Origin: Humulus lupulus | Taxonomy: Eukaryota; Streptophyta; Magnoliopsida; Rosales; Cannabaceae | Assembly (NCBI RefSeq): GCF_963169125.1 | Contig: NC_084794.1 | Span: 113,188,358 to 113,252,357, forward strand | Direction: 5' to 3' | DNA: 64,000 nucleotides | Part shown: positions 256-59,265 of the stretch, in pieces | Layout of the letters: the number at the start of each line of letters is the position of its first letter | How positions within the stretch are numbered: the first letter of the stretch is position 1 | Notes under the pieces: model-generated | The model's input: only the letters and a program-made list of their open reading frames with translations | Database searches by the model: none | Told to the model about the DNA's origin: nothing | Translations under genes and position numbers: made by a program

Positions 256-1216
256 ATTGGGTTTTTAGCGTCTGGCTAAATGATGTTAAAGACAGTGCTA
301 TAGGAGGCATTCTTATACTTTATTTTAGTTTTTGTGTTTTTTTTTTGTTTTAATTCTTAATTAGTTGAACAATTTTATTTAATTTAGTTTTGTATTTGCA
401 AATATTTATTTATTATTTTTAGTAAAATGTATGTAAAAATCGTTCAATTCGTGAAAAGACTGTTTTGAAATTAGTCTGAAGGTCAAGTCGCGATTTGAGC
501 TTGTAAGTCGCAGCTTTAAACTAAGTCAGAGAGCATGTTAAATGAAGGAGGAGGTGGGCCACGACTTGAGCTTATAAGTCGCAGCCCCAAGACATGTTAG
601 AGAGCATATGGGGTCTTGTAGTAGAGGCGGGTCGCGACTTGGGTTTCGAGGGTCGCGGGACCTGTGAACTAGAAATTTAAAAAAAAAAATTGAGTTGGGC
701 CGCGACTTGCTATGGCTGGGTCGCGGCATGCCTCTGTCAGAAGGGGAAAATTTGTTTAAATTCATTTTTTTCTCAGCCTACAACCCTCATTTCACAATTT
801 CCTTCTTCCAACACAACTTGTTTTGCAAAATCTCTCTCCTTTTTACATTTCCCTTCTTCTTAAAATAATCATAAAGCCACACCCACTACTTCCTACATAT
901 ATATTTTCCTTCTTTCTTTCTTTTAATCAAAACCTAAATTGTTCAATTTGTGACATTGAAGATTGGAGGAGCAATTGAAGAGTGAGCAATCTCCAAGACT
1001 CAAAGGCAGGTAAGTTTTTCCTTTTTAATGATCTTGAATTTTTTTATTGAAGTATTTTTGTGACAATAGATTGAATTGGAATTTTGGACTCCATTGATAG
1101 TATATTTTGTGTTCTTTGAGTTGGGATTATTGGGGTATTATTCAATTGCGGAAATAAGATAAATTAGCGGAAGTGTCGCTGAATTTTTGTTGTAATATTT
1201 GGTGCATTATGTGATT
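256..1216 (+). other. Non-coding spacer of the Athila element, with a palindrome ladder
   Basis: AT-rich sequence between pol and the env-position gene. It holds four palindrome pairs (487-727, listed separately), a poly-A run near 670-690 and a consensus splice donor at about 1007 (caggtaagt). Athila elements often express the ORF after pol from a spliced RNA, so the donor could be relevant, but I cannot place an acceptor. No other gene is visible. Confidence 0.5.
487..727 (+). repeat. Palindrome ladder, Athila internal copy (4 pairs)
   Basis: Eight boxes of the GTCGCGAC/GCCGCGAC/GTCGCAGC type start at 487, 507, 558, 578, 631, 652, 699 and 720. Within a pair the boxes start 20-21 bp apart; pairs start 71, 73 and 68 bp apart. 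Sequence between boxes is only loosely conserved, so spacing is kept better than sequence. The same word and metric recur in the 3' LTR at 4148-4395. Confidence 0.75.
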
Positions 1217-2454
1217 ATGGGACCACGAAAACAACCTGATAGGGCTGCTTCTACTAAAATTACTAATCGCCCTTCCACTTCCACTCCCCGCACCCAACCG
1301 CCCCAACCACAGCCAGCCCCACCACCATCTCCTCAGGAATTTGATCCTACTCGTTTTATTAGTAAGGATGCCTTTGATCATTATCAAAGGTTATCTCAGC
1401 GTTAAGTAATTCAAGAAAGAGGCATGGAATATCAAGATGAACCTTATCTCTAGGAAACTTATGACCTAATTCGGGCTGAAATTCAACGTCGCCATAGGAA
1501 ACTTTTTGTGGATCATAAAATGCCAAAGACCAACTGTTCTATGGTTTATGAATTTTATGCAAATTTTCCAGGAGCAATTAATAGGAAGGTTTTTGTGCGA
1601 GGGGTTTGGTGGAATGTAATATTGATAATATTGATGCATTATATCGACTATCGATGTTGTCACAAGAGGACGATGAATATTATCAACTAGCTTATCATAG
1701 TGAGATTGATTGGGTTGAAGTGGCAGAAACGTTAGGCATTCCCGGTGCTACTTTTGTAATGCAAAATGGAGAGCCAAAGCATTTCAGACACTTTCAAATG
1801 AATTAGGTGGCGCGGGCCTGGACTCTCTTTGTGAGTGCGAGGCTTATGCCCAACACTCACTTATCTGAAGTGGGAACTGATTGGTGTCTTCTTGTCTATG
1901 CTATCATGACGGGACTCTATGTAGATATTGGACAAGTTATCTGAACTAGTATCCGAGATTTATGCTGAATGACTACTACTGCTGGTTTGGGGCATGGATC
2001 AATGATTACCGATTTATTTGATGTTTGAGAGGTACCTAAGTATCCTAGTTATATTTTTAGGAAGGAAATGGGGCCCATTTCTCGCGCTTCTATGTTTAAA
2101 TTCAATGCCCCATCTTTGGAGCCACCTGCACCACAGCCCCGGCCTGTGAGAGTTGAAGAAGAAGGAGATGCAGCCGATGAACCCATCCGTGCCAATGCTC
2201 AACTAGAAGAATCAAGGGCAGCTGAGGAGGAAAGGAGAGGAGCTTATCCTCAATTTTTGGCACTTGAGGCTCCACCGAATCCGCAGTTGGCCAGATTGGA
2301 TTATATCATCCGGCAAAACCAACACACTCATAATTATTTGGGGGAGCTTCATGATTATCATCGAGCTCAGGCAGACAGGAAAAATGAGTTGGTTTATCGG
2401 TGGTCAAATCAGGAGGAGGACAAGCATTATTTTCCTTATCCACCACCCTTTTGA
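1217..2454 (+). pseudogene. Env-position ORF of the Athila element ('putative plant transposon protein' domain), broken
   Basis: Starts MGPRKQPD with a Pro-rich N-terminus (about residues 15-45), then the domain usually found after pol in Athila/Tat elements: FISKDAFDHYQRL, VYEFYANFPGA, KVFVRGVWW, ARLMPNTHLSEV and LLVYAIMTG are readable in order. The tail is acidic and Glu/Arg-rich with a likely helical stretch. It is dead: in-frame stops near 1403 and 1454, a frame change near 1610, and further stops from 1804 to about 2030; only 2068-2454 is open again. An upstream ATG at 1199 is in frame, but 1217 gives the usual short basic start. The function of this domain is not established in general. 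Confidence 0.7.
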
Positions 2455-3861
2455 CATGATTCGTACTAGGTAAGTTTTCTTTCTTTACTTATTTTTAAAC
2501 ATTAGGGACCATGTTTATCTTAAGTTAAGGGGAGGGAGCTTATTTTTCCTTTCATTTTGTTTGTGTTTGTTTTGTTTGTTTAGATTGTGTTATTGTTTGG
2601 TGTAGAGTTTTGTTTTAGTGTGTGTTTAGTACCAACATGAATGATGGTTGACAACAAGTGCTAATGAGAACAAATTGAATGTTATGCGTATAATCCAAAG
2701 AAAATGAAATCTAAAGAAAAAAATCTAGATGCTTGATTGAAAACTCTGTTAGTTCATTTTAGTTAAGACAACATTTGTTGAATATCTTGTCATGATGTTT
2801 AAATTGATGTTTTTGATATTGATTATGCTTGTTAAAATTGGTTAGTGGATTAATGAATGGAAAGTGGAAATTATTTTCTACAATTCTAGAACTTGCTTAC
2901 TAGTTATTTGAGGCGAAATAATATATCATGTATGCTTAGGAATATGATTTAGGCTATCATTTGGATCGTTTGAGCTTTTCTTGCCGACATGAAATTATTT
3001 AGGAATATATCATGTATGCTTAGGAATATGATCCTTTGTTTACCCCTTTTGAGCCTAACATTGTATCTTTTGTTTTAAGCCATTATTTTAACCTAATACT
3101 TGAAATTTGGTTAGATATTCGTCCCTAATATACTATGAGCACATGATTGAAAAAAGTTATGGGGATTGATGTGTAATTGGGTTTATTTGTGAATATAATG
3201 GGATTAGAAAATGAAAAGTGAAAAAGATTAGAGAGAGTATATATATTGAAAAAAAAGTTCAATAAAAACTACACTCCCAATATGAATATATAAAAGAATC
3301 AAGTTTGGGGGAGTGTAGTTATCATCTGAGAAAAAAAAAGTATATCTCTCTAAATAAAATCAAGAAAGGGGATTATGGGATTATATTTACTACGGGAGTA
3401 AAGTCGGTGATTTTTGGTTATGTGCTTATAGTAGAGTGAGCTTAAAAATTACTTTCTCATCTACCTTTACCTAAGCCATCATTACAAGCTTATACAAGTC
3501 TTATCGATTCTTATGCATATCATGATTTATATTAGTGGAGAATAGCAAGTAAGTGAGCTTATGGAATTATTTTGTTTGAATGGATTGATTGGAAAGAATT
3601 TGGTTAGCATAATTTATTTCAAATACGTTTATTTAATGATCATGACTTGGTAATCCAAAATGTTAGTAGACTAAAGTGTGTTGATGGAGTGTTTTGATTA
3701 GAATTCTGGATTGCATAAACTGTTGAGTATTTTTATGAGAATTATATGTTTAGCATTCATGATTTTGAGGCATAAGTGTTGTTGTTTGTATAATTCATGT
3801 TGTGGACGTTGTCTTTGTTGTTAGAGTCTATGTTTGTTTTGAGTGCTCGAGGGCGAACAAA
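2455..3861 (+). other. Athila 3' untranslated internal region
   Basis: No gene is visible. A purine-rich tract at 2521-2540 and a polypurine-tract-like stretch at 3300-3318 (caagtttgggggagtgtag) lie well upstream of the tract at the LTR border. A 29-bp segment beginning aatatatcatgtatgc occurs twice, about 81 bp apart, near 2922 and 3003. The remainder is AT-rich, with only short random frames. Confidence 0.55.
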
Positions 3862-3880
3862 GAGTAAGTTTGGGATAGTT
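3862..3880 (+). other. Polypurine tract of the Athila element
   Basis: Purine-biased sequence (gagtaagtttgggatagtt) lies immediately before the LTR start TGATAACTCC. This is the expected place for the plus-strand priming tract of an LTR retrotransposon. Confidence 0.6.
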
Positions 3881-5324
3881 TGATAACTCCATTTTAGTGT
3901 TGTTTTAGGATGTGTTTTTGTGGTAATCTTGAGTCTTTATGTTTGTTTTGTGCAAGATTACGCTTGTTTTTGTCTTTGTAGGTTGGTGCGTTGAATCATG
4001 AGATAAATGTGGAAAGAAGAGGAAATGGTGAAAAACAGGAGCTTTCAATGGTCTCTTTAATCAAAATGGTGCTAAGGACGAGTTATAATATGTTTTTGAT
4101 GAAGAAAGGATGTTGAAAGGCTTAAATTTAAAAATAATGGAATTAGAGTCGCGGCATGGGTTTAAGGGTCGCGACTCTAGTCAAGTCAGAAGCTCAAGGT
4201 TGCTGAAGGGAATTAGAGCCACTACTTGTTCTTATAAGTCACGGCACTAGTGGAAGTCTGAGGCTAACCCAGGAGGGCATTAACACATGGGCCGCGACTG
4301 GGGTTTAGAGAGCCACGGTGCCTGAAGACCTACTCAGACTTTGAAGGGCCTTAAAAATGACACGGGCCGCGACCTAGGAAAGGCCAAGTCGCGGCTCGCC
4401 TATAAAAAAGAAAGAGGAATTCGTGTTTTCTTTAGTATAAATTCAGACTTTATGTTTTAATTAGGGTAAGGTCCGATTTTAATTACGAGTTTAGAGATAA
4501 AATTTGATTCTAAGATTAGTTTTTCTGCACTTTGATATTTTTTTTATTTCTTCTTCAAGTCTTTGAATTTTATGTTTTGAATAATTATTTTGTTGTTTTA
4601 GTCATGTCTGATATGAACTAAACACTTCTATCTAGGGTTTAATGTAGTCTCTTGGATTTCTATTTAATCTTATTATGATGTTCTATTGATTCTTCTTCTT
4701 TATTCTAATCTATATAATGTTTGCTTAATGCTAGTAAATACCTGATCAATATTTGCTTGATTTATGATTTTGATTCAAAATTCGAAAGGTGAGAATTGAA
4801 TATGCTATCTTTATATAGACATAGGTTACATATTGGACGAAAGTACTTGTATGGCTTGTGTAGTAATTAGGTTTCTGTGCTTAATGCCTACTATATGCTT
4901 AAGTTTATCATAGAGATGTAGAAAACATGCATATAGGTTGAGATCTTATATCTTGAAAAAGAATAGGAATGGATTTTTGTTAACCTGGTATTAGAATAGG
5001 AAGAAAGAAATTAAGAACTGATTAATAAAATTAATAAGTTGAAAAGTTGATGAAGTTAACACCCTAGGTTTTTAATTATTGAATCAATCTTTATTCTTGC
5101 AAAGTTTATTTTAATTTTAAGTCTTAGTTTAAAAATCACTCTATTGTCGACAGCCAAATAGAAATTTAAAAGCATTTATTGGTAATTGGTTGGTAGTCCT
5201 TGTGGGAATGATACTTTATTTAGTATCTATATTACTTGAATTGATTACGTATACTTGCATATCATATTTTCACGATCAGTTTCAAAGGGCTTAACCTATA
5301 GCTAAGTGTTGTTCTACACTATCA
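3881..5324 (+). repeat. 3' LTR of the Athila-type element
   Basis: 1,444 bp bounded by TGATAACTCC and CACTATCA, giving the inverted termini TGATA/TATCA. It directly follows the polypurine tract and encodes nothing. It contains the palindrome ladder at 4148-4395. The matching 5' LTR and the target duplication partner are outside the window. Confidence 0.8.
4148..4395 (+). repeat. Palindrome ladder, Athila LTR copy (4 pairs)
   Basis: Boxes start at 4148/4168, 4218/4238, 4291/4312 and 4366/4388. The best are GTCGCGGC, GTCGCGAC and GCCGCGAC; the second pair is degenerate (GCCACTAC, GTCACGGC). Intra-pair spacing is 20-22 bp and pair period 70, 73 and 75 bp, matching the internal ladder at 487-727. 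Confidence 0.75.
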
Positions 5325-5505
5325 AGAGGTAATGGAAATTTGTGGTTTATTTTTTTTTCTTGGTTGATTGATTTTTCATTAGAAAGGGTATGTTAGAATT
5401 GTGGTGGTTGTTTTGCATGAAGGGTATGTTTTGTCTTGATACTCTTGGTTCTTGAAATAAATGAATCCATGATTTTTTTTGGAAAAGAAATGTGAGTTTG
5501 ATAAA
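5325..5505. other. Unassigned sequence between two elements
   Basis: 181 bp of T-rich sequence between the Athila LTR end and the Tek0 LTR start. It matches no other part of the window and holds no ORF or recognisable site. It may be original target DNA or an older decayed repeat. Confidence 0.4.
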
Positions 5506-6640
5506 TGTAACGTCCCAAATTCCCTAACAAGGCTTAATGTCTTGATTAGGGGCTAGGAGGGCAATAATTGAATTAATTATGTGTTTATGTGATTATATAC
5601 ATGATTATGTGAGTTAGGTGAGTTATATTATGATATGACTATGTTTGCATGTTTAATTGTATTAAATATGCACGTGGACCCGTTTCTTGATAGAAGGCCA
5701 TTTTTGTAATTTTGACTCGGAGTATAATTGTAAATATATGTGTGTTTGTGATTTAGACCACATTATTATGTGGATATATTTGGGTTACTCAGCACGAGAT
5801 GATCCTAGTGAGCAATTTAGCGGTTTAGTCACAACAAGGTCAAATACCCGGGTCAGGGTGAACTTAGGGGTAATTTGACAATTTAGTACATTACCAGAAT
5901 TTATCGGGTAATGGGAAGTTATTTGGCGATTACTTAGGAAATTATGAGGTATTAATTGAGATTGGCGGGAAATGGTGGCAAAATACCATGTTGCCCTTGA
6001 GGGCATTAAAGAACTAAGTAAAGGTTAGGGGCGTTTTGGTCTTTTACAAGCCTTAGGATAAGTCTAGTAAGGTAAGGAGAAGCCTTCAGAAATTAAAGGA
6101 AAGACATTTCACTCAGCTCTCTCTCTCTCTCTCTCTCGGTTCTCTCTTTCTCTCTTAGTGGGTGTTGGGGTTTTGAGATTTTTGAAGAAGGATTCTTGAA
6201 TTTAAAGGCTTGAACGTGATCTTAGAACCGGGAAACTATTTAAGTTGCAACTAGGAGTTCGAATCCCAACTAAGGAAACGTTTTTGATCCAGTAATCTCT
6301 CAGTTCCATTTTCATTTTTGGTGTTCTTGAGCTTCAAAGCTCAAGATGGGATTTATGTGTTTCTATGGAGATTTTGGTTATATTGTGGTGTTATATTGTC
6401 ATTTTGGATTAATTACTTTGAGTTTATAACTCAATTCTAGGTTTGGTTGTTAGTTGTGGTGAATTCTATGGGATTTGGCTCAGAGAAAAGCTTTGAAAAT
6501 ATAGGTTCGCGGAGTTGCGCCGCGGAGCTGTTCTTTGAGTGTCGCGGTCCGCATAAACTCATAGGCTAGGGCAGTTCTCTGAATCGCCTTGGCACCACGG
6601 TTCCTAGTGGGAGATAGCTTAAGGGCTCTTTGTGGATGGG
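5506..6640 (+). repeat. Truncated 5' LTR of Tek0
   Basis: It contains the superfamily start block, a CT microsatellite (6117-6138), the conserved 'gatcctagtgagcaatttagcgg' region near 5802 and a small palindrome cluster near 6506-6548 (TTCGCGGA, GCGCCGCGG, GTCGCGGT). The last 1 kb expected from related LTRs, including the splice-donor-like motifs and the PBS, is missing. The right boundary is approximate. Confidence 0.65.
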
Positions 6641-9421: not shown

Positions 9422-10491
9422 TGTAACGTCCCAGAAATTTAGAAAGATAATTCAAGCTTTGATTAGCGTGCTGGAGAGTGTAATTTAATATTTGTGCAAT
9501 TAAGTGTGTGTAATTATGAGTATAAATGTGATTATGTGAATTTAATTATGTTTAAAGTCACATGCCTGGTAAACTTGGGCATTTCTGTAAATTGAACCCG
9601 CTGAGGGTATGCGTGTGGATTTATGCTATGTGCTTTGTGTTTCAGCATTTGGGGATTCTGTCCCGCGGTATTAGCAAAAAGTCACAAATATGGTTATTAG
9701 TGTTTAGTTGTGAGTGGTAACAAGTGGTAACTCTTGGTGTCAGTAACTTTTGTGAAATTAGTGGGAATAAGTGATCTTCTTGCAAAAGAGTGAAATGACT
9801 AGGTTACCCTTGAGGTTTAGTATAGAAGTGAGTTAGAGGGAGGAGTAGAATGGTCATTTAGGCTCTAAATTAGACAAACCCGCAGCTGAAGGTTAACTTT
9901 CACGTTCTAGGCTTCTCAAGAGTCTATTGGTCATTTGGTTCAAGTTTTCAAGAAGAAAGAGGAGAGCACAAGACTAGACAACTGGCTTTTGAAGGAAATT
10001 GGAAGTGAATTCAAATTGAGGAAGAGATTAGTATCCATCCATACCTAGGTATCTCGAAATCTAAGAAGATGTCAGAGATTTTCATGTGGTTTAAGGTCTT
10101 TTATGTTGTTCTTGAGGAATGTGAATTTGATTTTTGAATTTGGGTTTTGGGATGAAGTTTTGAGGAACTTAAGCTTGGAAATTTGAGGATTGAAGCTTGG
10201 AGTGGCATTGGAGGCAGCCTAGGGTCAAAATTCTGCTCTAAATGTAAGGTTTCCTTTAAGTTTTTGAAAAGTTTCTAGTTAGGGTTAAACTTTGTGCAAT
10301 TTTAGATCATTGAGTGATTTAGAGTTTGGATGTGAGTTTGGGTTTGTTTTTGATGCATATGTGTTGTTTATGTTGTTTATTAGGAGTTTTGGGTCCAATT
10401 GGGACTTAGGTACACTTGGGGAATGATTTGGGTAAGCTTGGGTTCGGAAAAATGGTGGAAAAACCAATGTTCGTTTCTGGGTTCTATAGGG

Positions 10492-10587
10492 AGCGCTACA
10501 ACGCTACTCTTTGGGCGCTATAGCGCTAGGGGTCCTTCTGGGTTCTATAAGTAGTGCTATAGCGCTACTTCTTGGGTGCTACAGCGC
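10492..10587 (+). repeat. Palindrome ladder, Tek1 5' LTR (2 pairs)
   Basis: Boxes AGCGCTACAACGCT (10492-10505) and GCGCTATAGCGC (10515-10526) form the first pair. AGTGCTATAGCGCT (10553-10566) and GTGCTACAGCGCT (about 10575-10587) form the second. Centres within a pair are about 22 bp apart and pairs about 61 bp apart. Both pairs follow a 'gggttctata' lead, so the 61-bp unit is itself an imperfect tandem duplication. A decayed copy is in the 3' LTR at 17515-17595. Confidence 0.75.
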
Positions 10588-10653
10588 TAGGCAAAAATTC
10601 AGGAAGGCAAATTTTTCAGTATTTGAGAATTTGTTCCGGGGGCTCGAGGGTCG

Positions 10654-17793: not shown

Positions 17794-19981
17794 TGTAACG
17801 TCCTACTGCCTTAGAGCCGTTACTAAGTGAGTTTAAACGTGTAATTAACTCGCTAATCGAGGTTTTAAGACAAAAGTGTAATTAAATCATAATCAGAGTC
17901 ATAAACTTGAGAATAAACCTTTCATTGAAAATTATAAGACATATAACATTCGGGATCCCAAAAACATTGTTTAGAAATATTTACAACTCAAAACTTAGTT
18001 AGAGTCGACTAAACGACAAAATTCGGGTTTTGTACAAACATCTCTCAAAATACTCCTGGCCGTGACAGCCAGACATACCGAACATGTATGTGCTGCTCGT
18101 CCCGCTCACCAAACTCAAGGTTGATTGTCTCTCCCTATGCCTTTACCTGCACCATAGAGCACCCTTGAGCCGAAGCCCAGCAAGAAAACCCTCACAAGCA
18201 GATAATAAACGTATATCAAACACTTAATATAAAATCAAGCCAACACTAGGTCATACATATACGGCCATGACGTCCAAGGCGCTTTACCAGGCCCTGGGTT
18301 CGCGGTCTAAACCGTAAGGATATCCCAGGTATCCCTTGGGGTCTCACCCTGGCAACTCGCACTCTGCGTGCTAAATGCTGCTCCCGGCTCCTTGCCATTC
18401 TCGGCCTTCGCCGTTCCTAGCCTTCGCCATTCCCAGCCTTTGCCATTCCCGGCCATCGCCGTTCCATCATTAATATATACACATAATATACTAAACAAAT
18501 ATTAAAACACACATAAATTCAGTCAAAGGGCCATGTCCCACAACACAATCATATAGGCCGAGCCCTACAACACAAGCTCTATGGGAACAGTAGTTTTCTT
18601 ACCTGCGTCCTGAGCTTTCTAGGCACCAATGTCCCGAGCACAGTTCCCTAGTCCAAGCCTCGCCAAAACCCTAGTCACAACGCATTAACAATTTCATCTA
18701 TCAAGTTCTAATCCACTAAATAGCTTCGAGCCATAATTATAATCTCCGAGACCTTGAATTCTAACAATCCGGATGATAAAATCCATCCCGAGCCTTAGCA
18801 ATTAAGTTCCCAAGTCAAAACCCACAAGTCACCCTGCACCTTGGGCTAGGGCCGCGGCCCAACCCTTCAAGGGTCGCGGCTAACCTCAAAACAGAGGCTA
18901 AACACCTCCCTGAAAACACACATGGGCTGCGGCATGCTTGGCCAAGCGCCGCGGCGCGCCCCAAGGTCAGTGGCCTCCCCAGGCCTTGTGTGCACACGGG
19001 CTGCGGCATGCCCCTCCTAGGGTCGTGGCCCTCGCCTCCAAACCCAGAAAAACACCATTTTTCCTTGCATTTCCTTCGAGCCAACACTTCCAAAATCACC
19101 TCAACCCAACACTTAAACCCAAAATTCACACTTAAGCAACCTAAACATACCAACAAACTCAAGAACCAATTCCTACACCCATCAAGAAATCAAAAACAAT
19201 CTTTGAATCCAAACCATGCACATCTTAAGAAAACCAGCAGGAATTCAAGTAAAATACTTATAATTTGAAGCTTACCCTTGCTGAACTATGTTTCTGTGTT
19301 GATCCTCTAGGTTCCAACCTTTAATTCCTCAAGACTACCAGCCCAATTCCTTAGCTTCTAGTTAGTTTCACCAAGATTTCCTTTGATATGCCTTAGAGAA
19401 AAATGGAGAGAGAGAAGAGAAGACAACTTCAAGAGAGAGGGAAAGAAAGAGTCGGTTTTTGATTTTCTAAAGACTTCATAGGCTTTGTTTTATTTAAGTT
19501 AAGCTTTAAGGTTACCTCAAGGCTCGGGGTACCAAAAACATCCCCGAGGGAAAAATGGTAAATTTCCCCCATATTCACTCCTAAACGTTCTAACCTCAAA
19601 TATATCTCCAAATATTTATTTCCATAACCCGATAACCCCATAAAACATATGACACCCGTAATACCCCTCTACCCGCCCCGGGTCGGATTCTCAACCCCGT
19701 TGTGACTTTTTGACTAACGGCTCCCTAGGACTGTCTCGGATCGTGCTACACAGATATATCACAAACAAATCACGTTTATCACATTTATGCCCTTAACGGG
19801 GTAAAATCACAAACATGCCCATGATATCCAAATGGGGCCCACATGCATATTTAATTCAACTAAACATGCATCTCTATCACATATTCACATAAATTCACAT
19901 ATTATAACAATAATTCACTTATTGCCCTCTAGGCATACTAATCAAGGCCCTAAGCCTTATTAGCAAATTTGGGTCGTTACA
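17794..19981 (-). repeat. Tek2 3' LTR
   Basis: 2,188 bp; minus strand TGTAACGACCCAAATTTGC to GGACGTTACA. Splice-donor-like motifs in sense order: GGGTAAG (19271-19277), AGGTAAG (18598-18604) and AGGTAAA (18142-18148). A CT/GA-rich stretch is near 19395-19445. It is closely similar to the 5' LTR at 42325-44455. Small open frames here are artefacts. Confidence 0.93.
18849..19029 (-). repeat. Palindrome ladder, Tek2 3' LTR (3 pairs)
   Basis: GGGCCGCGGCCC (18849-18860, perfect 12-bp palindrome) pairs with GTCGCGGC (18873-18880). GCTGCGGC (18926-18933) pairs with GCGCCGCGGCGC (18946-18957). GCTGCGGC (19000-19007) pairs with GTCGTGGC (19022-19029). Centre spacings are 22 bp in all three pairs; pairs are about 75 bp apart. 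The 5' LTR copy (43340-43505) has lost the first box. Confidence 0.75.
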
Positions 19982-38622: not shown

Positions 38623-40730
38623 CCGGCTTAGCGAAAAAGTCATGGCGGGGGATTTATACCCGGCTCGGGGCGAGCCTGGGGGTATTTCTGGGAATTTAGA
38701 GAATATATTGGGTCAATTTTGACATTGAGGAATATAATTGGTGATTAGTTAGGTGTTGGGAAGTAAGTGGTAGATATTTGAGACACTCGAGGAATTAGCA
38801 GGAATTGGGTGAAATGACCAAAATGCCCCTAGGTGGATTAAAAGGCTTAGGAATTATGGGAGGGTATTGTGGTCATTTGGCTTGTAAAGGATAAATGTTA
38901 TTAGGATTTATACTTAGTGGATGGTGTAGAAAGGGCTGGAATTCTGAAGGAAAGAAAGGAAAGAAAAGAAAGAAGAGAAGGAAAAAGGGAATTAGGAGTC
39001 TACCTTTCTCTCTCTCTCTCTCGGTTGAAGGACTTCTCTCCATTTCTTTAAGGAGTTTGGAGCTAAAACTCAGAGTGAGTCTAGACAGGACCTTGAGGCT
39101 AGGATCCCTGTTCTGGTTTGAGGAATTGGCAGAGCAATCCATCCACCTGAGGTAAGACTTTGAGGTTAATATTCAGTTTTTTGTATTGGTGTTGAGTTTG
39201 TTTTTCTAAGCAAAGTTCTGTGGCAATTCAAGGAAGTTGAGGCTGAATATTTGAGGAGGAGAAGGCTAAGGAATAGTGGGAGACAACCTAGGCTAAACTC
39301 ATCCAGCAAAGGTAAGGAATTCAAGTTTAAGTCCTCTGGTTTCAGTTGTTATTTAATTGAGTTTCTGAGCTTTAGGTCCAGCCATGGTGAATTTTGTGAT
39401 TTGGAGTGCATGTGCTTAAGTTTTGTGTGGTTGGGATGTTTTGGATGAGTGGAGGATGTTGATAAGCTTTTTTTTGTGTTTGGTTGAAGTTTGGAAGAGT
39501 TTTGGTAAGGTTGGGCTCATGAAAAATTGAAGGAGAAAAATACAGGGTTTGTTGTACTGTGATTAGCGCTACAGCACTAGCTATTGGGCGTTGTAGCGCT
39601 AGGCCATGTTGTCTGGGGCATTTTTGGCCCTGCTTGTAGCACTGTAGCACCCTCCAAAGAGCACTGTAGTGCTACCCTATTTCCAGAAAAGTGTTTTTGG
39701 ATTATTTTCAAGGATTTTTGCCCGGGGATTCAGGGTTTGATTCCACCACCCCATTTGGTGGAATTAGGGCTTCCCGAAGGCTCGGGATTTGTCCTGAGGT
39801 TAGGTTTTGAACTTGAGGTTTGGTGATGATTCTAATCTATGGTTGTGACTAGGTGTGCGCTAGGGCTCGAGAGGGATCGTGCTTGAGAATCAAATCGAAC
39901 AAAGCTAGCAAATCTAAAGGTAAGAAAACTGCACCCGGTTATGTGTTTGTGATGGGACTAAGGGCTCCCTATACCTGTATAATGTCATAGATGGTATTCT
40001 GTCATGGGACATGTGGAAAATGACCTAAGGGTGCCGTAAATTATACTTGCGCACAGGGCGCGGCTTGGCCACTGGTAGCCGAGGATAGCTTAACATTCAC
40101 TGAGCTCGGTTTAAGTGGGCCGAAGTCAGTGGGATAAATAGAGGGTGCGGCCTAAGGGCATTAACCCTAGTTATTATATGTGGATTGATTGTTGATATGA
40201 ATTTATATAATTGGTATGATGAATACTTGATCATCAGGAATGCTTAAACTGTTGAGTACATGCTTATGCGATATGAGTTATCTAATTGCCTGTTGAATGA
40301 TTGTGCTCTGTTATTGTGTTTTCTTGCTGGGCCTTGGCTCACGGGTGCTTCGTGGTGCAGGTAAAGGCAAAGGCAAGTTGGACCAATCCTGAGATGGAGG
40401 GCTACGGGGTTGAATGTACATGGTCAGCTATTCAGCTGCCACGGCCGAGGAGTGGAACAGGACGGGATATGCTTAACTGCCTGTTTTGCCATAGTATGGC
40501 TAGTCACTGTATTTAAATCTTGAATCTTTTGTAGACAGTCTTAAACTTATTACTTTTGGGATTCCATGTAAATAGAAAATGTTTATTTATAAGAAATGCA
40601 GCTTTTGAGACCAAAATCTTTTAACCCTAGTTCAACTATAGTCTGGTAACACGTTTTGATTAAATGACTTGATTAGCAAGTCTTGCACCTTTATAAACAC
40701 ATAACAATCTTGGCTATCCAGGGCTTTACA
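38623..40730 (+). repeat. LTR-C, main segment
   Basis: It contains all four AGGTAAG-type motifs (39150, 39310, 39918, and AGGTAAA at 40359), the palindrome ladder (39564-39673) and the hairpin (39740-39764). It ends ...ggctatccagggctttaca. The 40320-40365 block 'ttcttgctgggccttggctcacgggtgc' is shared with LTR-E, LTR-F and Tek1. Confidence 0.9.
39564..39673 (+). repeat. Palindrome ladder, LTR-C (2 pairs)
   Basis: TAGCGCTACAGCACTA (39564-39579) and GCGTTGTAGCGC (39588-39599) form pair one. GTAGCACTGTAGCAC (39636-39650) and AGCACTGTAGTGCT (39660-39673) form pair two. Centre spacings are 22-23 bp and the pair offset is about 72 bp. Confidence 0.7.
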
Positions 40731-47722: not shown

Positions 47723-47892
47723 AAGGGCAGCCTTGCGTAGCGAGGCCCCTTAGGTCCTTCCAGGCACTTTCGCTAAGGGCTCCTGTGAGACATGGGTCTC
47801 GTGTCGGACAAGATATTAGGCTGCTTTTCTTGTTCGAGGCTAATTGAGGGAAACTGTTGACTATGGCTTTGGTCCATTTTTTGGCATTCACT

Positions 47893-50024: not shown

Positions 50025-50026
50025 AC
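50006..50026 (-). other. Primer-binding site of Tat1
   Basis: TTTGGCGCCGTCTGTGGG on the minus strand follows the 5' LTR. TGGCGCC-type sites are typical of Tat/Athila elements and usually assigned to tRNA-Asp; the tRNA match was not checked. Confidence 0.65.
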
Positions 50027-51754
50027 TGTTGACGGTGAGAACTCGTCAACTAAGTTGAGTTGGAATAAATTATCAAGTTAGGATCGTCAATAAAAAAGCT
50101 ATAGAAATCAAAGCAATAACTCAAGAATTATGACAGAATAACAATGGAGAAGTCAATCAATCTTTCATTAACTCTCAAGCCTTTGCTACAGTAGAACTTC
50201 CAACCCCCTTTCAGGTGGTGTTAGAGTTCCTTTTATAGTAGGCTCTAATGGCCCTTGGTACATGGTGGTCCAGGAGACCAAGGGGTACATAAGTATTATG
50301 TCAGGGGAGTGGCTTCAGAGGTTGTGGTCGTACATCTAGTACAGGAGCAGGTGTCAGGAGGATGTCTCCACTACTTGTCCGTACCCATGCCAGAGGAGTG
50401 GTGGCAGACGTAGTGGTGCAGGTGGTAGTGGTGTCGACTCTGACTCCTGGCCATAGACGTACGGGCTCTAACTCTTATCCTTGCAATCCCACGCCTGACG
50501 TTCCCACTACTTGTCTGGTAGGGGTACCATATCCGTACTCTAACTTCTTTAGGTTTGTAGGTGCATTCCATATTCATGCGTGTACCTTGCCACTTGTGAG
50601 TATTCTCACCTCCAAGGCCATGGACGCGGGACCATGGGGCCGAGGCCATGGGCACGAGGCCATGGAGCGTGAGGCCATGGGCGCAAGGCCATGGGCATGA
50701 GGCCATGGGGCCGAGACCATGGGGGCGAGGCCACAGGGCTGAGGGCATGGGCGCAAGGCCATGGGCATGAGCCATGGGGCACGAGGCCATGGGGCCGAGA
50801 CCATGGGGGCGAGGCCACGGGGCGAGGCCATGGGGCCAAGACCATGGGGGCGAGGCCATGGGGCCGAAGGCATGGGCGCAAGGCCAAGGGGATGAGGCCA
50901 TGGGGCGCGAGGCCATGGGGCCGAGACCATGGGGGCGAGGCCACGGGGCCGATGCCATGGGGGCGAGGCCATGGGGCTGAGACCATGGGGGCGAGGCCAT
51001 GGGGCCGAAGGCATGGGCGCAAGGCCATGGGGATGAGGCCATGGGGCGCGAGGCCATGGGGTCGAGACCATGGGGGCGAGGCCACGGGGCCGAGGCCATG
51101 GGCGCAAGTCCATGGGCATGAGGCCATGGGGTGCGAGGCCATGGGGCCGAGACCATGGGGGCAAGGCCATGAGGCCGAAGGCATGGGCGCAAGGCTATGG
51201 GGCCGAGACCATGGGGGAGAGGCCATGGGGCGCGAGGCCATGGGCGCGATGCCATGGGCGCGAGGCCATGGGGCCGAGACCATGGGGGCGAGGCCATGGG
51301 GCCGAAGGCATGGGCGTAAGGCCATGGGGCCGAGACCATGGGGGCGAGGCCATGGGGCGTGAGGCCATGGGCACGGGGCCATGGGGCCGAGGCCATCTGC
51401 GCGGAGCCACGGGGCCAAGGCCATGGGGCCGAAGGCATGGGCACAAGGCCATGGGGCCGCGACCATGGGGGCGAGGCCATGGGGCGCGAGGCCATGGGCA
51501 CGGGGCCATGGGGCTGAGGCCATGGGCGCAAGGCCATGGGGTCAAGGCCATGTGCGTGGAGCCATGGGGCCGAGGCCGTGGGGGAAGGGCAGCCTTGCAT
51601 AGCGAGGCCCCTTAGGTCCTTCCGGGCACTTTTGCTAAGGGCTCATGTGAGACATGGGTCTCGTGTCGGACAAGATATTAGGCTGCTTTGCTTGCTCGAG
51701 GCTAATTGAGGGAAACTGTTGACTATGGCTTTGGTCCATTTTTTGGCATTCACA
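50027..51754 (-). repeat. Tat1 5' LTR
   Basis: 1,728 bp. The G-rich array spans about 50612-51580 and the TATA box is at 50229-50238. Unique parts are nearly identical to the 3' LTR; the array differs in length and unit order. Confidence 0.9.
50612..51580. repeat. G-rich minisatellite in Tat1 5' LTR
   Basis: Same units as 46480-47722 but about 0.97 kb. Since the two LTRs are identical at insertion, the difference arose afterwards by unit gain or loss. Confidence 0.9.
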
Positions 51755-52424: not shown

Positions 52425-54550
52425 TGTAACGACCCAAATTCACTAATAAGGCTTAAGGGCCTTGATTAGTGTGCCGGGAGGGCATGATGGGAATTATGTG
52501 TGATTTTTTATGATTAAGATGCATGATTATGATTTAAGCATGTTATATGATTATGTGAATTATCTTATGTGATAATTATGATGTGTGAATCGTACCGCAT
52601 GGGTGCTGTGATACCAACGTGATGCACGTGCCGAGACGGTCCTAGAAAACTAGATAATGGTAACTGGTGATTTGGTAACCTGCGTAACTGTTAGTAACCA
52701 TAGAGAGTAACAGGTTTTATGGGGAAAGTGGTAGAATTGCAAAGCTGGTGAAAAGACAGGTATGGCCTTGAGGTTTAGTTAGGAAGGGGTATTAGTGGAA
52801 GGGTAGAATAGTCATTTGGTAGGATAAATGATCATTAGCTGAAGGGAAAATATCATATACGTATAACACTTGGAGAAGTGGGTTTATGCTGAAATTGGGG
52901 ACCTAGAGAAAGAGCAAACCTAAGAAGAAGAAGGGAGAAACTGAATTTAGCTTTTGGAAGAAGAATTTAAGGGTGATTGAAGTTGTCAAGCAAGCATAGA
53001 TCAAGAATACTCAGAGGTAAGATTTTGATTATGATATATCCAAGTTTTAAGTCTGAAATTTTAGATAATGAATGTGAATTGAGGCAAGTTGGTGGCTGGT
53101 TTTGTGTGAATTCAGAATTGGGAAATCAAGGGGGGAAGGAGGTTTAGAGCTGGAGGTTGGACTCACCACTCAAGGTAAGGTCTCTGTGTGATTATTAGGC
53201 TTGTTTCTGTTAAGGTATAGGGAGTTTGGGGTGTGGTTTGTGTTTGAGTTCAAGTTGTTCTTAACTTTCTGGTTTGAGTTGTTAAGTATGAAATTCAAGA
53301 GTGAATTTTAGGATTGAAGGTGTGAGTGAGCTTGGGCATGATGTTTTTGGGTTGTTGTGAGGTTTATTAAGGGTTTAGAGTTGGTTTTGGGACTTAGGAT
53401 GGAGTTTGGGGTGATTTGGAGAGGTTGAAGCTCGGGAAAACGCGAAGGAAAAACCCAGAATTCTGGACTGCGAAGGCGTGCCGCGGCACGGGTTTTGTGT
53501 GCCGCGGCGTGGAGTCCCTGACTGATGGGTGCCGCGGCACAAGGCCAATTTCAGAGTGTCACTTTTGGAAATTTTTGGCCTTTGCTCCGGGGGTTCGGGG
53601 GATGTCTCCGGGGTATTGTTCTAAGGTTTTGGGGGTTCCGAGAGTGTGGGTTAGGTTCCGGGAAGGTAGTCTTGGATTGGTTAATGACAAAGAATATTAT
53701 ATTTGTGTTGTGATTAGGACTTTGGAGAGGCTCGGAGTAGAGGACCGTGCTTGTGGCTACGTGGCATCGGAAACCAGTGAATTGAAAGGTAAGAAAACTG
53801 CACCCAAATGTATGATTGTGATGGGACTAAGTGCTCCCGAGAGTTGTATTGTGTCATCGTTGGTATTATGCCAAGGGACACGTATAAGCGGTCTAAGAGT
53901 ACCGTTCATGATTTTAGCGCACGGGGCGTGAATTGGCCATTGGAAGCCAGAAACAATAGGTTAACAGAGGGAGCAGCCTGTGAGCGCTAGCCCTGGTTAA
54001 CATCTGTGTTTTATGTATTTTGAGCTGAGATGCTTAGTATGTGGTATACTTGAATGATGATATACTTGAATTTATGAGATGCTATATGAGTAATTGACTT
54101 GATTGCTAGTTTTTCATGCTCTGTTATTGCTGTGTTTTCTTGCTGGGCCTTGGCTCACGGGTGCCTCGTGGTGCAGGTAAGGGCAAGGGCAAGCTGGACC
54201 AGGCCTGAGGTGGAGAGCTCCGAGGTGAAATGTACATAGCCAGCTGTTCGATCACCATGGTCGAGGAGTGTGTCAGGACAGAGATTACCTAACTGCTCAT
54301 TTTGTCTTAGTATGGCTGTTAATGTACTTAAACATTGTAACTTTTGTAAATGGCTTTTAAACTGTCATTTTTGGGATCCCATGTACATAAACAATGTTTA
54401 GTAATGAGAACATAACTTTTGAGGCCAAAACGCTTTTAACCCTAGTACCTCTACTGTTTTAGAACACGTTTTTACTTTTACGACTTGATTAGCAAGTCCG
54501 GCACTTTATAAACACACAGTGTAGCGGTCTTGGCTATCCAGGGCGTTACA
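52425..54550 (+). mobile_element. LTR-E: solo LTR
   Basis: 2,126 bp from TGTAACGACCC to GGGCGTTACA with perfect target duplication GAAAT (52420-52424 and 54551-54555). AGGTAAG motifs at 53015, 53173, 53787 and 54175 are all intact. The 171-codon open frame at 53416-53931 crosses the palindrome ladder, resembles no protein I know and is probably chance. No internal region, so it is a product of LTR-LTR recombination. Confidence 0.95.
53477..53540 (+). repeat. Palindrome ladder, LTR-E (3 boxes)
   Basis: CGTGCCGCGGCACG (53477-53490) is a perfect 14-bp palindrome. GTGCCGCGGCG follows with its centre 21 bp away (about 53504). GTGCCGCGGCAC (53529-53540) has its centre about 30 bp further on. A fourth box is missing. 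Confidence 0.72.
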
Positions 54551-54555: not shown

Positions 54556-55543
54556 TAACTTAAGAATAGGAATACCTTTGGATGTACTAGAACCGATCTA
54601 CACCTCGATATTGAAAACACACTATATCTCACTTCCCAAGTGTTTATAAAGCTAAAGATGATAAAGCGTTTATCCCAAACCCAAGTGTATCACTCTATAG
54701 TAACCCTAACAGCTTGAAGGCTCTGAACACAACTTGAAGAATGAGAGAAATGGCTGGGTACTAGGTCCTATTTATAGAGTTCAAGGGATGAAAATATTTC
54801 CTTTTAGCTTGAATAAAATAATGAATATTAAATGAAAAATATTTGAATATTCAGTCAATCAGATGCTTAAGACTCGGTCAAAAAATTTCAGAGGCAAGTC
54901 AAGAGGTTAAGGGATGAATCAAGCTCGGATTCTACGAAGTTTGAAAATATGGTCCCAGGGCCGATATATCGCCCACCCTAGGCGATATATTGCCTGGCCC
55001 TATGTCCTGAGTGATTGTGGTTTCGTTCGTGCAAAATCGACGTGTTTTCCGTATCTTCCGTTAGGCGATATATCGACCCCTATGCTGCGATATATCGGCA
55101 TACATGAATATATTAAACACGTAATTGCACTTTTTTTAGCATAAATTGAATTGGATAACAGCTTTGACTGAGTCATAATTCGATCCTAACAGTTTCTGGA
55201 AGGTTCTAGAGCTTCTAGATTCTTCCATTATTGGATTATCCATTTAAAATGCTTAAATCCTCAAATAAGCATAATTATGACAAGTGTCATGCTCTTAATG
55301 GTTCTATCTAAACCTTAAGTTATAATTAAAATATTTCTATGACCAAAATTATTAATCAAACCTTATGTTATAATTAATTTTTCTAAACTATAGGTTAAAC
55401 TTATAAAATCCCTAACTATTGCTACAAGTGTCCTTCTAAGTCCCGGTTTGAACCAAAATCCACAGAATCTAACATACTACTAACTAATACTAACTACTAC
55501 TACTACTACCTAGCCAACTAAGTAAATATTATGGGACTCTACA
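54556..55543 (-). repeat. LTR-D, 5' segment
   Basis: No gene. It contains the CGATATATCG ladder (54962-55097) and a 'ctactaactaatactaactactac' simple repeat near 55485-55507. A short block 'ttataattaa...' is duplicated near 55319 and 55369. Confidence 0.7.
54962..55097 (-). repeat. Palindrome ladder, LTR-D (2 pairs, CGATATATCG word)
   Basis: CGATATATCG at 54962-54971 pairs with CGATATATTG at 54983-54992 (centres 21 bp apart). CGATATATCG at 55066-55075 pairs with CGATATATCG at 55088-55097 (22 bp apart). The first pair is enclosed by an inverted AGGGCC/GGCCCT. The pair offset is about 104 bp, longer than elsewhere. Confidence 0.75.
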
Positions 55544-56834
55544 TAAATATAATTATAATCATGCTCATTAATAGGGCCAAAGCCTTAATCATGTCTATAT
55601 TTAACCATCGAGCCAAGCCCTAATCACACATTCACATACTGGGTGCAGTTTTCTTACCTTCAGTCCAAATTCAAATTACTAATGACAACCCTTGAGTACG
55701 ATCCCTGATCCGAGCTCTTAGCGTTGACCTAGTCACAACCATAATAAGGAATTATATCAACAATAAGTAAAAAAAGGCTTCTGGACTAAATCATAGCTTC
55801 CGGGACATCGAATTCCACCCAACACGGAAGTGGAATCGATCCCGAGCACAAAAGGTTAAGTTCTCGAACTCAAAACCTCCTCAGGGCCAAAAATCCAGTT
55901 AAAAGTCGCGGCCCCATACTCCTATGTCGCGACCCGCCTCCATCTAGAGGCTCAACCTCCCCAAACTTCAGACACGCGCCACGACCCAACCCTTGTGGCG
56001 CCGCGGCCCACCCTTGCCACAGAGCCCACCTTAGCTCCCCTTTGCTCCATAGGGTTGTAGCACACCAAGAACAAAGTCACGACCTAGCCTTTCGAACCCA
56101 GAATTTCTGGGCTTTTCCCCCAGCCGAACTCAACTAAACACAATCCAATTATACTCAAATCTTTCAATTAAATCCCCATAATCAATATAACTTCTTTCCA
56201 GCAATAAAACCTAGCTAATTACTAGCTTAAAACTCATCAACACACCCAAAATTCATTCTCTAAACCAACAAACATGCAAACACTTAAGCCTTCAACTAAA
56301 GCCACAGAAACATCAAGAAGAAGTTGAATTAAACTCTTACCTTAAAGATGAAAACACCCTTGAATTAATCCCCAAGTTTCCCAAGCTCAATCCTCCAATT
56401 TTTCAAGCTTAGTTCTTCAATTCCTCAAAGTTTCTCAAACCACAAAGAGAAATAAAGAGAGTTACATGAGAGAGAAGAAATTTTGTTTATTTACTCTGCT
56501 TCTAGCTTACCCTCAGTTGAAGAAACAGTTAACTTAAGTCTCTAGTTTAGGCATAAATGACTCAAATGCCCCTAGGCCAATCCAAACTCTCCATAACCCT
56601 CCAAGGGCGATTCCGTCAATCGCCACTTCCCGTGAATCCCCAAGTGCTCCTCTATATCCCCAACTATTCCAAAATAATAATCATTTAATCTCCCATTACC
56701 CGATAAACCCCGGTAATGTACTAAATTACTAAAGTACCCCTAAGCTCGCCCCGAGCCTGGTATTGTACCCCATTGTGACTTTTCCGCTAACTTGCTCACT
56801 GGGATCGCCTCTTGTCGAGTAACCCAAATATATT
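55544..56834 (-). repeat. LTR-B, third segment
   Basis: Donor-like motifs on the minus strand at 55655 (cttaccttc) and 56338 (cttacctta). The hairpin variant is at 55812-55836 and the palindrome ladder at 55905-56083. No gene. Confidence 0.85.
55905..56083 (-). repeat. Palindrome ladder, LTR-B (3 pairs)
   Basis: GTCGCGGC 55905 with GTCGCGAC 55926; GCCACGAC 55978 with GCCGCGGC about 56000; GTTGTAGC 56054 with GTCACGAC 56076. Centre spacings are 21, 22 and 22 bp and offsets 73 and 76 bp. Even the degenerate third pair keeps the spacing. Confidence 0.72.
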
Positions 56835-59265
56835 TGTAACACCCTGGATAGCCAAGACCGTTACACTGCATGTTTACAAATGTGCAAAACTTGTTAATCA
56901 AGTCATTTAGTTAGAAACGTGTTACTGAATCTACAGTTGAACTAGGGTTAAAAGATTTTGGTCATAAAAGTTTCATTTCTTATAATCAAACATTTTTACA
57001 TGGGATCCCAAAAGTAGTAGCGTTAAAAGACACTTTACAAAATTTCAGGATAAAAGTACAGTTACTAGCCACTCTAAGGGCAAAACAGACATTTGGCTTT
57101 TCCCATCATGTACTGCCCCTCGGTCGTGGCGGCCGATCAGCTGACTATGTACATTCAGCCTCAAAGCCCTCCATCTCAGGACTGGTCCACTCTGCCCTTG
57201 CCTTTACCTGCACCATGTAGCACCTGTGAGCCAAGGCCTAGCAAGAAAACACATTAACAGAACATAATCATCAAACAAACAACTAGATAACTCATACAGT
57301 ATAATCATATACTCAATATTCCAAATATTCACGTTAATCAAGTATTCAGCATACCAAGTTCAACATTCATATTAACAACCATTCACAAATGATAACCAGG
57401 GTCAACGCCCTTACATCGCACCCTCTATTTACCCCACTAACTCCAGCCCGCTTAAACCGAGCTCAATGAATATCAAGATGTCCTCAGCTACCAATGGCCG
57501 ACCCGCGCCCTTTGCGCAAATATTATTTACGGCACTCTTAGGTCGTTTATCACATGTCCCGTGGCATAATATCATCTATGACATCATACAGATATAGGGA
57601 GCTCTTAGTCCCAACACAATCACATAACCGGGTGCAGTTTTCTTACCTTTAGATTCTAATAGCTTTGTTCAATTCAACCCTCAAGCACGATCCCGCCTGA
57701 GCCTTAGCGTACACCTAGTCACGGTCTTAAGTCAGAACCATACCAAACTTCAATTCCAAAACCTAGCCTTGGGACCAATCCCCAGCCCTCGGGAAGCCCT
57801 AATTCCACCAAATGGGGTGGTGGAATCAAACCCCGAGCCCTCGGGCACAAACCCTAAGAAATAACCCAAGAACCCCCTTCTAGAAATAGGGTAGCGATAC
57901 AACGCCATAAAGAGGGCGCTATAGCGCTAAAAACAGAGCCAACAGGCTCCCAGACACCCAAGCCTAGCGCTGTAGCGCCCTAAGGCTAGCGCTACAGCGC
58001 TAGTCACAGCTAGACAACACTCAGGTTTTTCCCCTTCGAACTTCCTCGAGCCAAAACCCTCTAACACCCTTCCAAAGCTCAACCAAAACACCAAAACAAG
58101 CCCACCATCATCTATAACTCACCCCATATGACCCAACAATATGAAACTTAAGCACATGCACCCCAAAACAAGGAAATCACCATGGCTAAGTTTGAAGCTC
58201 AAAAACTCAACAGAAAACAACAGAAACCTCTGAATTCAAGTGACCAAGTTCAGAACTTCTTACCTTCAACAGAGAAATTCGACCTTAGGCTATCCTCCAC
58301 ACTTCCTTAGCTTTCACGCCTAAAAACTTCAGCCTTAACTCCCTAGAATTTCCATCAAAACTCAGCTCAAAATCCATTTTAACACCAAGAACCAGAAACT
58401 GAATAGCAGCCTCAAAATCTTACCTTAATTGGATGAGTAATCTCTGCCAATCCCTCAAGCCAAGTCAAGAACCCTAGTGGTGAGCCTTAGCCTAAGCCTT
58501 CTCTGAAGTTTAGCTCCAAATTCTAGAAAAATTGGTGAAGAAAAGCCCAAACCAAGAGAGAGAGAGAGAAGAGACTCCCACTTTTCAAACCGAGAGATAG
58601 AGAGAGAGAGAAGAGACTCCCACTTTTCCTTCTTTCCTTTTCCTTCAGACTTCTAATACTTTCTACATATTCCACTAAGGCATAAAGCAGCATGACCCTT
58701 ATCTCTGATTTTAAACCCCAAAAGACCAAACTGCCCTCCCAATTAAAACTAAGCTTTTAAACCTCCTAAGGGCATTTTAGTCATTACACCCAATTCCTGC
58801 TAATTCCTCGAATGTCTCTAATATTTATCGCTTACCTCCCGACACCTAACTAATCACCAATTATATTCCTCAATATCAAAATAGACTCCAATATATTTCC
58901 TAAATTCCCAGAAATACCCCAGGATCGCCCTGAGCTGGGTATAAATCCCCGCCGTGACTTTTTCGCTAAACCACTCACTAGGATCACCTCGAGTCACAAG
59001 CTACAAATATATCCACATAATAATGTGGTCTCATCAATTTATCACAGATATTTACATTTATGCCCTCAATGGGACAAAATTACGAATATGCCCTTCTAAC
59101 ATAATCAAGGCCTACATGCATACTAATACACATAGTCATGCATCACAGATATCCAAATAATCATATAACATGCTTTTAATTATTAAATCACATATAATCC
59201 AATTATGCCCTCCTGACACACTAATCAAGGCCCTTAAGCCTTATTAGTAAATTTGGGTCGTTACA
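56835..59265 (-). mobile_element. LTR-F: solo LTR
   Basis: About 2.43 kb, minus strand TGTAACGACCC (59265) to GGGTGTTACA (56835). The flanks rejoin as 'ccaaatata-tccacataataatgtgg', which is the uninterrupted sequence found at 59003-59030. The target duplication is imperfect (ATATT against TATCC), one terminal base being ambiguous. Four donor-like motifs (minus strand) lie near 57206, 57645, 58261 and 58423. GA repeats at 58555-58605. Confidence 0.85.
57893..58002 (-). repeat. Palindrome ladder and hairpin, LTR-F
   Basis: TAGCGATACAACGCC (57892-57906) with GCGCTATAGCGC (57916-57927); AGCGCTGTAGCGC (about 57966-57978) with TAGCGCTACAGCGCTA (57987-58002). Centre spacings are about 22 bp and the pair offset about 73 bp on the second members. 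The hairpin is at 57802-57826, on the 3' side in LTR sense. Confidence 0.72.

What the first reader, a model, noticed from the sequence alone, without database searches (positions are those of the whole stretch)
487..58002. Palindrome ladders with constant geometry but a family-specific word in unrelated LTRs
Seen directly: at nine loci (487-727, 4148-4395, 10492-10587, 18849-19029, 39564-39673, 53477-53540, 54962-55097, 55905-56083, 57893-58002) short dyads come in pairs. Their centres lie about 20-23 bp apart, with pairs repeated every 60-76 bp in most (104 bp in LTR-D). The word differs: GTCGCGAC, GCGCTATAGCGC, GTGCCGCGGCAC, GGGCCGCGGCCC, CGATATATCG. Degenerate pairs keep the spacing. Elements range from Athila to Tekay-like LTRs. 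Spacing conserved while sequence is swapped suggests selection on geometry: about two DNA helical turns, as for dimer-binding proteins on one face, or RNA stem elements, or a link to 21-22-nt small RNAs. Function is inference; I know of no description of this feature.
Basis: partly seen in the sequence, partly recalled or inferred. Interest (0 to 1): 0.93.

Follow-up and report, generated by a model that had tools for sequence, protein, structure and literature searches.

The report
Paired palindrome ladders in plant retrotransposons
Many jumping genes in this plant genome carry rungs of short mirror-symmetric DNA words, set in pairs about two turns of the helix apart, most likely docking sites for a protein that controls them; the word differs between families while the spacing barely does.

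Summary
All nine loci carry dyad pairs with centres 20-22 bp apart; three more ladders were missed. Same-word dyad pairs at 20-23 bp: 8 in the masked window (shuffles 0.1), 6 in 160 kb of unselected genome (0.13), though such pairs exceed shuffles at other distances too. In the 2.48-Gb source genome four words form 14,136, 22,507, 69,833 and 1,881 close pairs; backward patterns give 0, 1, 120 and 0. Of 14,136 GCGCTNNAGCGC pairs, 12,692 have a 10-bp spacer of varied sequence. Corrections: the LTRs are one Athila-type lineage plus relatives of one chromovirus-like lineage; one word is shared by both; 487-727 lies outside the LTR, upstream of a broken env-like ORF. The Athila LTR ladder ends 5 bp before a TATA box; ladder G lies about 185 bp upstream of one. 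Best reading: promoter arrays of paired palindromic protein-binding sites. RNA hairpins are a live rival: Athila pairs favour them, GCGCTNNAGCGC boxes do not. Sirevirus LTRs have a published counterpart (PMC2829016), so this is a new variant of a known kind.

The parts
487..727 (+). Athila linker ladder, four pairs of GYCGCGRC-type boxes (spacings 20,20,21,21), outside the LTR
   Evidence: ladder present in 6 of 7 relatives read, the seventh (L069) has unrelated sequence there
1217..2454 (+). broken env-like ORF remnant downstream of the linker ladder
   Evidence: stops in frame; PF20167 below its cut-off here (E 0.005), E 2.6e-20 in L071 and 1.1e-15 in L067, no hit in L069; that it is env-like is recalled
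3880..5325 (+). Athila-type 3' LTR (TGATAACTCC...TATCA; ends placed by eye)
   Evidence: sequence read; LTR type recalled
4148..4395 (+). Athila LTR ladder, four pairs (20,20,21,22), steps between pairs 50,53,54
   Evidence: at least one pair at 19-23 in 18 of 18 fetched copies
4401..4407 (+). TATA box (TATAAAA), 5 bp after the last box
   Evidence: exact TATAAAA in 8 of 19 copies including the window, 5 bp after the last box in each
10475..10591 (+). ladder A5 (GCGCTRYAGCGC, two pairs at 22) in LTR 9422-11582, followed by PBS-like TGGTATCAGAGC at 11584
18849..19029 (-). ladder B (GCCGCGGC/GTCGCGGC, three pairs at 22, steps 53 and 52)
39564..39673 (+). ladder E (GCGCTRYAGCGC type, two pairs at 22)
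53477..53540 (+). ladder F (GTGCCGCGGCAC; spacings 21 and 30) at the LTR position homologous to D/E/A5
54962..55097 (-). ladder G (CGATATATCG, pairs at 21 and 22)
   Evidence: similar layout in L061
54768..54777 (-). TATA box CTATAAATAG about 185 bp downstream of ladder G
   Evidence: sequence; same TATA about 185 bp downstream of the ladder in L061
55905..56083 (-). ladder H (GYCGCGRC, pairs at 21 and 22)
57893..58002 (-). ladder D (GCGCTRYAGCGC, two pairs at 22)

Best explanation
The ladders are cis-regulatory arrays of retrotransposon promoters. Each box is a palindromic site for a dimeric DNA-binding protein; boxes are paired two helical turns apart so that two dimers sit on the same face and bind together, and pairs repeat about seven turns apart in several families (B, D, H, Athila). 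The array drives the LTR promoter and, in Athila, probably a second promoter for the env-like gene. Word turnover between families would reflect switching between binding factors or escape from silencing. Shown: boxes, spacing, genome-wide excess, TATA position in Athila and in G, a second ladder upstream of the env-like ORF. Inferred: protein binding, cooperativity, promoter function, the reason for word turnover.
For: Tight within-pair spacing for four words and in two lineages, with varied spacers (29 distinct in 50 listed places). The step between pairs is looser (31 spacings of 46-53 bp around 30 listed places). The Athila LTR ladder abuts TATA; the G ladder lies upstream of CTATAAATAG. 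Same word in the Athila LTR and upstream of its env-like ORF. Word swap with both-sided differences at a homologous position. In 31 distinct listed GCGCTNNAGCGC pairs the central dinucleotide is R-Y in 61 of 62 boxes, as two half-sites GCGCTR would give. Pair-to-pair steps that I picked from four arrangements (61, 73, 92.5, 104) lie near whole helical turns (approximate p 0.03; suggestive only, values chosen by hand).
Against: No binding, expression or methylation data. In the A, B, D, E, F, H, I LTRs no TATA box shared between families was found downstream of the ladder (A5 alone has TATAAAA about 240 bp downstream), and a CT-rich stretch about 400-600 bp upstream of the ladder in B, D, E and I could mark the start site, which would put the ladder inside the transcript. 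No known factor was matched. In Athila the two boxes of a pair complement each other better than each complements itself, which a simple dimer site does not predict. With independent half-sites GCGCTGCAGCGC should be commoner than the 1 of 62 boxes. Similar dyads exceed shuffles at other distances too.
Confidence: 0.5

Rival explanations
1. RNA (or cruciform) hairpins: the two boxes of a pair fold on each other, an 8-16 bp stem with an 8-14 nt loop, serving packaging, genome dimerisation or small-RNA production.
For: Of ten ladder pieces folded, D and G do far better than shuffles (z -5.4 and -4.3), six others -1.8 to -2.7. In 70 Athila LTR pairs box-to-box complementarity (0.77) exceeds self-complementarity (0.69) and direct identity (0.68), and outer flanks extend it (0.64 against 0.32-0.38). 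Outer flanks of 51 GCGCT pairs are slightly more complementary than re-dealt ones (12 of 1000 reach it). Palindrome clusters of maize Sireviruses are small-RNA hotspots (PMC5311732, PMC10760457; passages).
Against: In the 51 GCGCT pairs (from 30 loci, not independent) the boxes are less complementary to each other than re-dealt boxes (993 of 1000 re-deals reach the value) and more alike in direct orientation (23 of 1000). In 18 G pairs the flanks show no preference for box-to-box over self pairing (0.41 and 0.43 against 0.56 and 0.41), and in the Athila pairs at spacing 21 the outer flanks do not extend the match (0.33). The piece of ladder B folds worse than shuffles (z +1.7) and the linker piece no better (-0.4). 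A hairpin needs no fixed 10-base loop.
Confidence: 0.22
2. Anti-silencing sites: the boxes are bound by an element-encoded or co-opted protein that removes silent marks, as VANC does on VANDAL elements, and words change through co-evolution.
For: VANC targets are short motifs that often form tandem repeats in non-coding TE regions and vary between related TEs (PMC5735166 passages; PMC10398659 abstract). Ladders are CpG-rich (6.7 vs 1.8 CpG per 100 bp), so methylation-sensitive binding is possible.
Against: I did not look for a candidate protein in these elements; I recall no VANC-like protein in LTR retrotransposons.
Confidence: 0.1
3. No present function: an old promoter repeat that spread by copy-and-paste and tandem duplication, with hairpin-mediated template switching during reverse transcription keeping the palindromes matched.
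For: Copies in a family share ancestry; a 61-bp tandem unit is visible in A5; within-family spacing constancy needs no selection over short times; many boxes carry C-to-T or G-to-A departures from the word; similar dyads exceed shuffles at other distances too.
Against: Two lineages and four words share the 20-23 bp spacing, and it recurs in unselected sequence; template switching would not fix the spacer length nor place the Athila array at TATA.
Confidence: 0.15

Closest known systems
Sirevirus palindromic repeated motifs (RM boxes), Bousios et al. 2010, PMC2829016
   Same: Multiple palindromic CpG-rich boxes per LTR, word differing by element, placed upstream of the TATA box; extra copies in the linker, 77 of 79 of them upstream of env (section 9).
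   Different: Reported for Ty1/copia Sireviruses and as absent from classic retrotransposons; core CGG-CCG except in Tnd-1; the sections I read name no fixed paired spacing. Here the hosts are Ty3/gypsy (Athila-type and chromovirus-like), cores are CGCG, GCGC-N4-GCGC or CGATATATCG, and boxes come in pairs 20-23 bp apart.
VANC target repeats in VANDAL elements (PMC5735166, passages)
   Same: Short motifs, often in tandem repeats, in non-coding TE sequence, varying between related TEs.
Tnt1 box I and other symmetric retrotransposon activator boxes (named in PMC2829016 section 19; details recalled)
   Same: Symmetric motifs named there among regulatory sequences of retrotransposons.
   Different: Single families, few copies, no word-swapping series (recalled).

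Membership tests
Sirevirus RM boxes | Host element is a Ty1/copia Sirevirus | tested here: not met
   B pol hits RVT_1 and RVP_2; the pol between two G-type ladders hits RVT_1, RVP_2 and RT_RNaseH and is 70% identical to B's; a piece between two GCGCTATAGCGC ladders holds a Ty3-type gag; chromodomain weak in B (E 0.0015)
Sirevirus RM boxes | Palindromic box with CGG-CCG core | tested here: not met
   Boxes are palindromic but cores are CGCG, GCGC-N4-GCGC or CGATATATCG
Sirevirus RM boxes | At least eight copies per element | tested here: inconclusive
   Athila LTR has 8 boxes and its linker 8; A5, D, E and G have 4 per LTR, so 8 only if both LTRs are counted
Sirevirus RM boxes | Position upstream of TATA in the LTR | tested here: inconclusive
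   Met in Athila and G; not established in A, B, D, E, F, H, I
Sirevirus RM boxes | Extra copies upstream of an env-like gene | tested here: met
   487-727 and 6 of 7 relatives; that the ORF is env-like rests on position, PF20167 in relatives and recall
Sirevirus RM boxes | CpG-rich cluster | tested here: met
   6.7 vs 1.8 CpG per 100 bp, observed/expected 0.84 vs 0.48
VANC target repeats | Bound by an element-encoded VANC protein | not testable with these tools
   no binding data
Athila lineage (487-5325) | Ty3/gypsy pol of the Athila clade | not tested
   I found and tested no pol for this element; assignment from LTR ends, layout and PF20167 is recalled knowledge

The most novel reading that the evidence does not exclude
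Ty3/gypsy elements of two lineages in this genome share a promoter code in which geometry is the fixed part (paired dyads two turns apart) and the word is an exchangeable address: families change or share words in concert across all boxes, tracking a fast-evolving set of DNA-binding proteins, with Athila using the same address for its LTR and its env-like gene.
Probability: 0.2. Interest if true: 0.85.

Novelty: new variant of a known kind. Interest (0 to 1): 0.62.

Why it matters
About 106,000 close pairs of three words in one genome (14,136 + 22,507 + 69,833) make this a very abundant regulatory-looking feature. It extends a motif architecture reported for Sireviruses to Ty3/gypsy elements, including the env-side copies in Athila, and adds a measurable rule (paired spacing) that allows direct tests of which protein or RNA process reads it. 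If protein-read, it offers a system for watching binding sites change word while keeping architecture.

Tried and rejected
Rejected: pure chance (and the backward-pattern controls); a general property of tandem repeats (the 14-bp CCATGG minisatellite at 46480-47730 and 50610-51590 gives mainly 28-, 36- and 56-bp spacings, with a single pair at 20); G as a copia element (my first guess, overturned). The unconstrained-centre search GCGCVNNBGCGC (3,800 vs control 2,334) is dominated, in its listed places, by minisatellites and says little. A viral-contig scan with the B reverse transcriptase confirmed no relative. The literature search for the words themselves (140 papers, 20 listed) showed only GTCGCGAC, in unrelated papers, among those listed. 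Other searches for palindromes with LTRs, Athila, gypsy or U3 showed, judged by listed titles and abstract starts, no description of paired two-turn palindromes; most subscription papers are not held, and Bousios 2016 (PMC4728375) was not held. The GCGCCTAGGCGC pair count did not complete.
Full report
What was checked. The window lies at G000:C2:113188358-113252357 of a 2.48-Gb assembly; its nested LTR retrotransposons point to a plant (inference). Perfect and near-perfect dyads are present at the nine named loci. A word-by-word scan of 12 ladders gave within-pair spacings of 20 (4), 21 (6) and 22 bp (15) among 48 neighbour distances; the others are mainly steps between pairs (39-54, 76, 83 bp), one 30-bp step in F and weak extra hits. 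Three ladders had been missed: 6518-6548, 17517-17590 and 43345-43502.

Chance. A word-blind finder (one dyad at least 5 of 6, the other at least 4 of 6, at least 9 of 12 bases alike, one containing CG) found 8 pairs at 20-23 bp in the window after masking the 14-bp minisatellite, against a mean of 0.1 (max 1) in 30 dinucleotide shuffles, and 6 against 0.13 (max 1) in 160 kb of unselected sequence. Against this, the same finder found 24 and 44 pairs at all distances from 12 to 80 bp where shuffles gave 1.7 and 4.4, and the unselected sequence has a second cluster at 71-72 bp (7 pairs). So shuffles understate the background; on a flat spread over the 69 distances about 1.4 and 2.6 pairs would fall at 20-23. 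The 6 unselected pairs lie at 5 places in 4 stretches and bring further words, such as GCGCCTAGGCGC with a 21-bp neighbour in L005. Single CG dyads are only modestly in excess.

Genome scale. With spacers of 4-34 bp allowed, GCGCTNNAGCGC pairs number 14,136 (control 0), CGATATATCG pairs 22,507 (control 1), GYCGCGRC pairs 69,833 (control 120) and GTGCCGCGGCAC pairs 1,881 (control 0; these are largely contained in the GYCGCGRC count). The control is the pattern read backwards, which is also palindromic and has the same composition. Exactly 10 bp of spacer is found in 12,692 of the 14,136. In the listed places, which are the first on contig C1 and not a random sample, centre spacing by hand count is 21-23 in 50 of 50 (29, 2 and 19), 21-23 in 50 of 62 (42, 7 and 1; the other 12 at 28-41) and 21-22 in 47 of 50 (40 and 7; three at 31). 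The 50 places hold 31 distinct 34-mers and 29 distinct spacers. In 30 short stretches around listed GCGCT pairs, neighbour spacings were 22 in 53 cases (30 of them fixed by the search), 21 in 3 and 20 in 3; 31 steps fell at 46-53.

Which elements. A5, A3, B, B2, D, E, F, H and I are LTRs with TGTAACGNCCC-like ends or sequence that links them into one set. B's pol carries RVT_1 and RVP_2 and its integrase end a weak chromodomain (E 0.0015). For the G word I took a piece lying between two CGATATATCG ladders 7.75 kb apart, which I infer to be the two LTRs of one element; its pol is Ty3/gypsy and 70% identical to B's. A piece between two GCGCTATAGCGC ladders 6.6 kb apart holds a Ty3-type gag. The second lineage is Athila-type: a 3' LTR at about 3880-5325 and a broken ORF at 1217-2454 whose relatives L071 and L067 hit PF20167 (E 2.6e-20 and 1.1e-15; L069 gave no hit). 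Naming it Athila and env-like rests on recall. The ladder at 487-727 is upstream of this ORF, outside the LTR. Of eight loci cut out from 40 matches to the ORF, seven including the window keep a ladder; L069 has unrelated sequence there.

Position. The last Athila LTR box ends 5 bp before TATAAAA at 4401. In the window and 18 of 18 fetched copies (of 40 other matches) a ladder with at least one pair at 19-23 is present, and in the 8 of 19 with an exact TATAAAA the distance is 5 bp each time. The G ladder lies about 185 bp upstream of CTATAAATAG, and the same TATA follows the ladder in L061 at about the same distance. For the other LTRs the start site is unknown: A5 has a TATAAAA about 240 bp downstream that the others lack, and a CT-rich stretch about 400-600 bp upstream of the ladder in B, D, E and I may mark the start.

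Word changes. At the same aligned LTR position D, E and A5 carry GCGCTRYAGCGC-type boxes and F carries GTGCCGCGGCAC. GCGCTATAGCGC and GTGCCGCGGCAC differ at three dyad positions, and at all three both sides differ. This could be stepwise or a replacement. Against strict family-specificity, GYCGCGRC serves both Athila and the chromovirus-like B, H and I.

DNA or RNA. Ten ladder pieces were folded as RNA: D z -5.4, G -4.3, A5, E, F, H and two Athila LTR pieces -1.8 to -2.7, the linker piece -0.4, B +1.7. In 70 Athila LTR pairs the boxes complement each other (0.77) more than themselves (0.69) or in direct register (0.68), and outer flanks extend this (0.64 against 0.32-0.38), though not at spacing 21 (0.33); 28 pairs, 24 of them from the linker, agree (6.07, 5.29 and 5.36 of 8). 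In 18 G pairs the flanks show no such preference. In 51 distinct GCGCT pairs the reverse holds for the boxes: complementarity below re-dealt boxes, direct likeness above, though the outer flanks lean towards complementarity (12 of 1000). These copies are related, so the numbers describe and do not prove. I lean to DNA sites because of the fixed spacer, the looser step between pairs and the TATA position, with RNA hairpins a live rival, above all for Athila.

Known work. PMC2829016 (sections 9 and 19 read; passages) describes palindromic repeated motifs in Sirevirus LTRs upstream of TATA and, in env-bearing elements, upstream of env, and calls them Sirevirus-specific. Later maize work, seen as passages (PMC5311732, PMC10760457), ties such palindromes to small RNAs. 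VANC target repeats (PMC5735166 passages; PMC10398659 abstract) show how motif repeats can evolve in TEs. What is added here: Ty3/gypsy hosts of two lineages, the paired two-turn spacing, a word change at a homologous site, and the scale in one genome.

Noticed in passing
46480-47730 and 50610-51590: A 14-bp CCATGG-centred minisatellite (about 86 and 68 units) sits in a repeat pair (45891-47454, 50022-51584) that flanks a gag ORF on the minus strand (48489-49493); a PBS-like TGGCGCCG lies at 50023 (-).
   Followed up: partly
31981-34116: ORFs with Transposase_21 (tnp2), Transpos_assoc and DUF4218 domains: remains of what looks like a CACTA-type DNA transposon.
   Followed up: no
LTR A5 10653-10679 and aligned sites in D, E, H: An inverted repeat, GATTCCACCACC...GGTGGAAT, lies just downstream of the ladder in several chromovirus-like LTRs.
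   Followed up: no
L005:4546-4588 and L005:8671-8742: Further ladder-like words (GCGCTGCAGCCC, GCGCCTAGGCGC) at 21-bp steps in unselected genome sequence.
   Followed up: partly
60589-60817: Tandem array of about 34 bp with CCAACCCGGACTATATATTC-like units, not part of the ladders.
   Followed up: no
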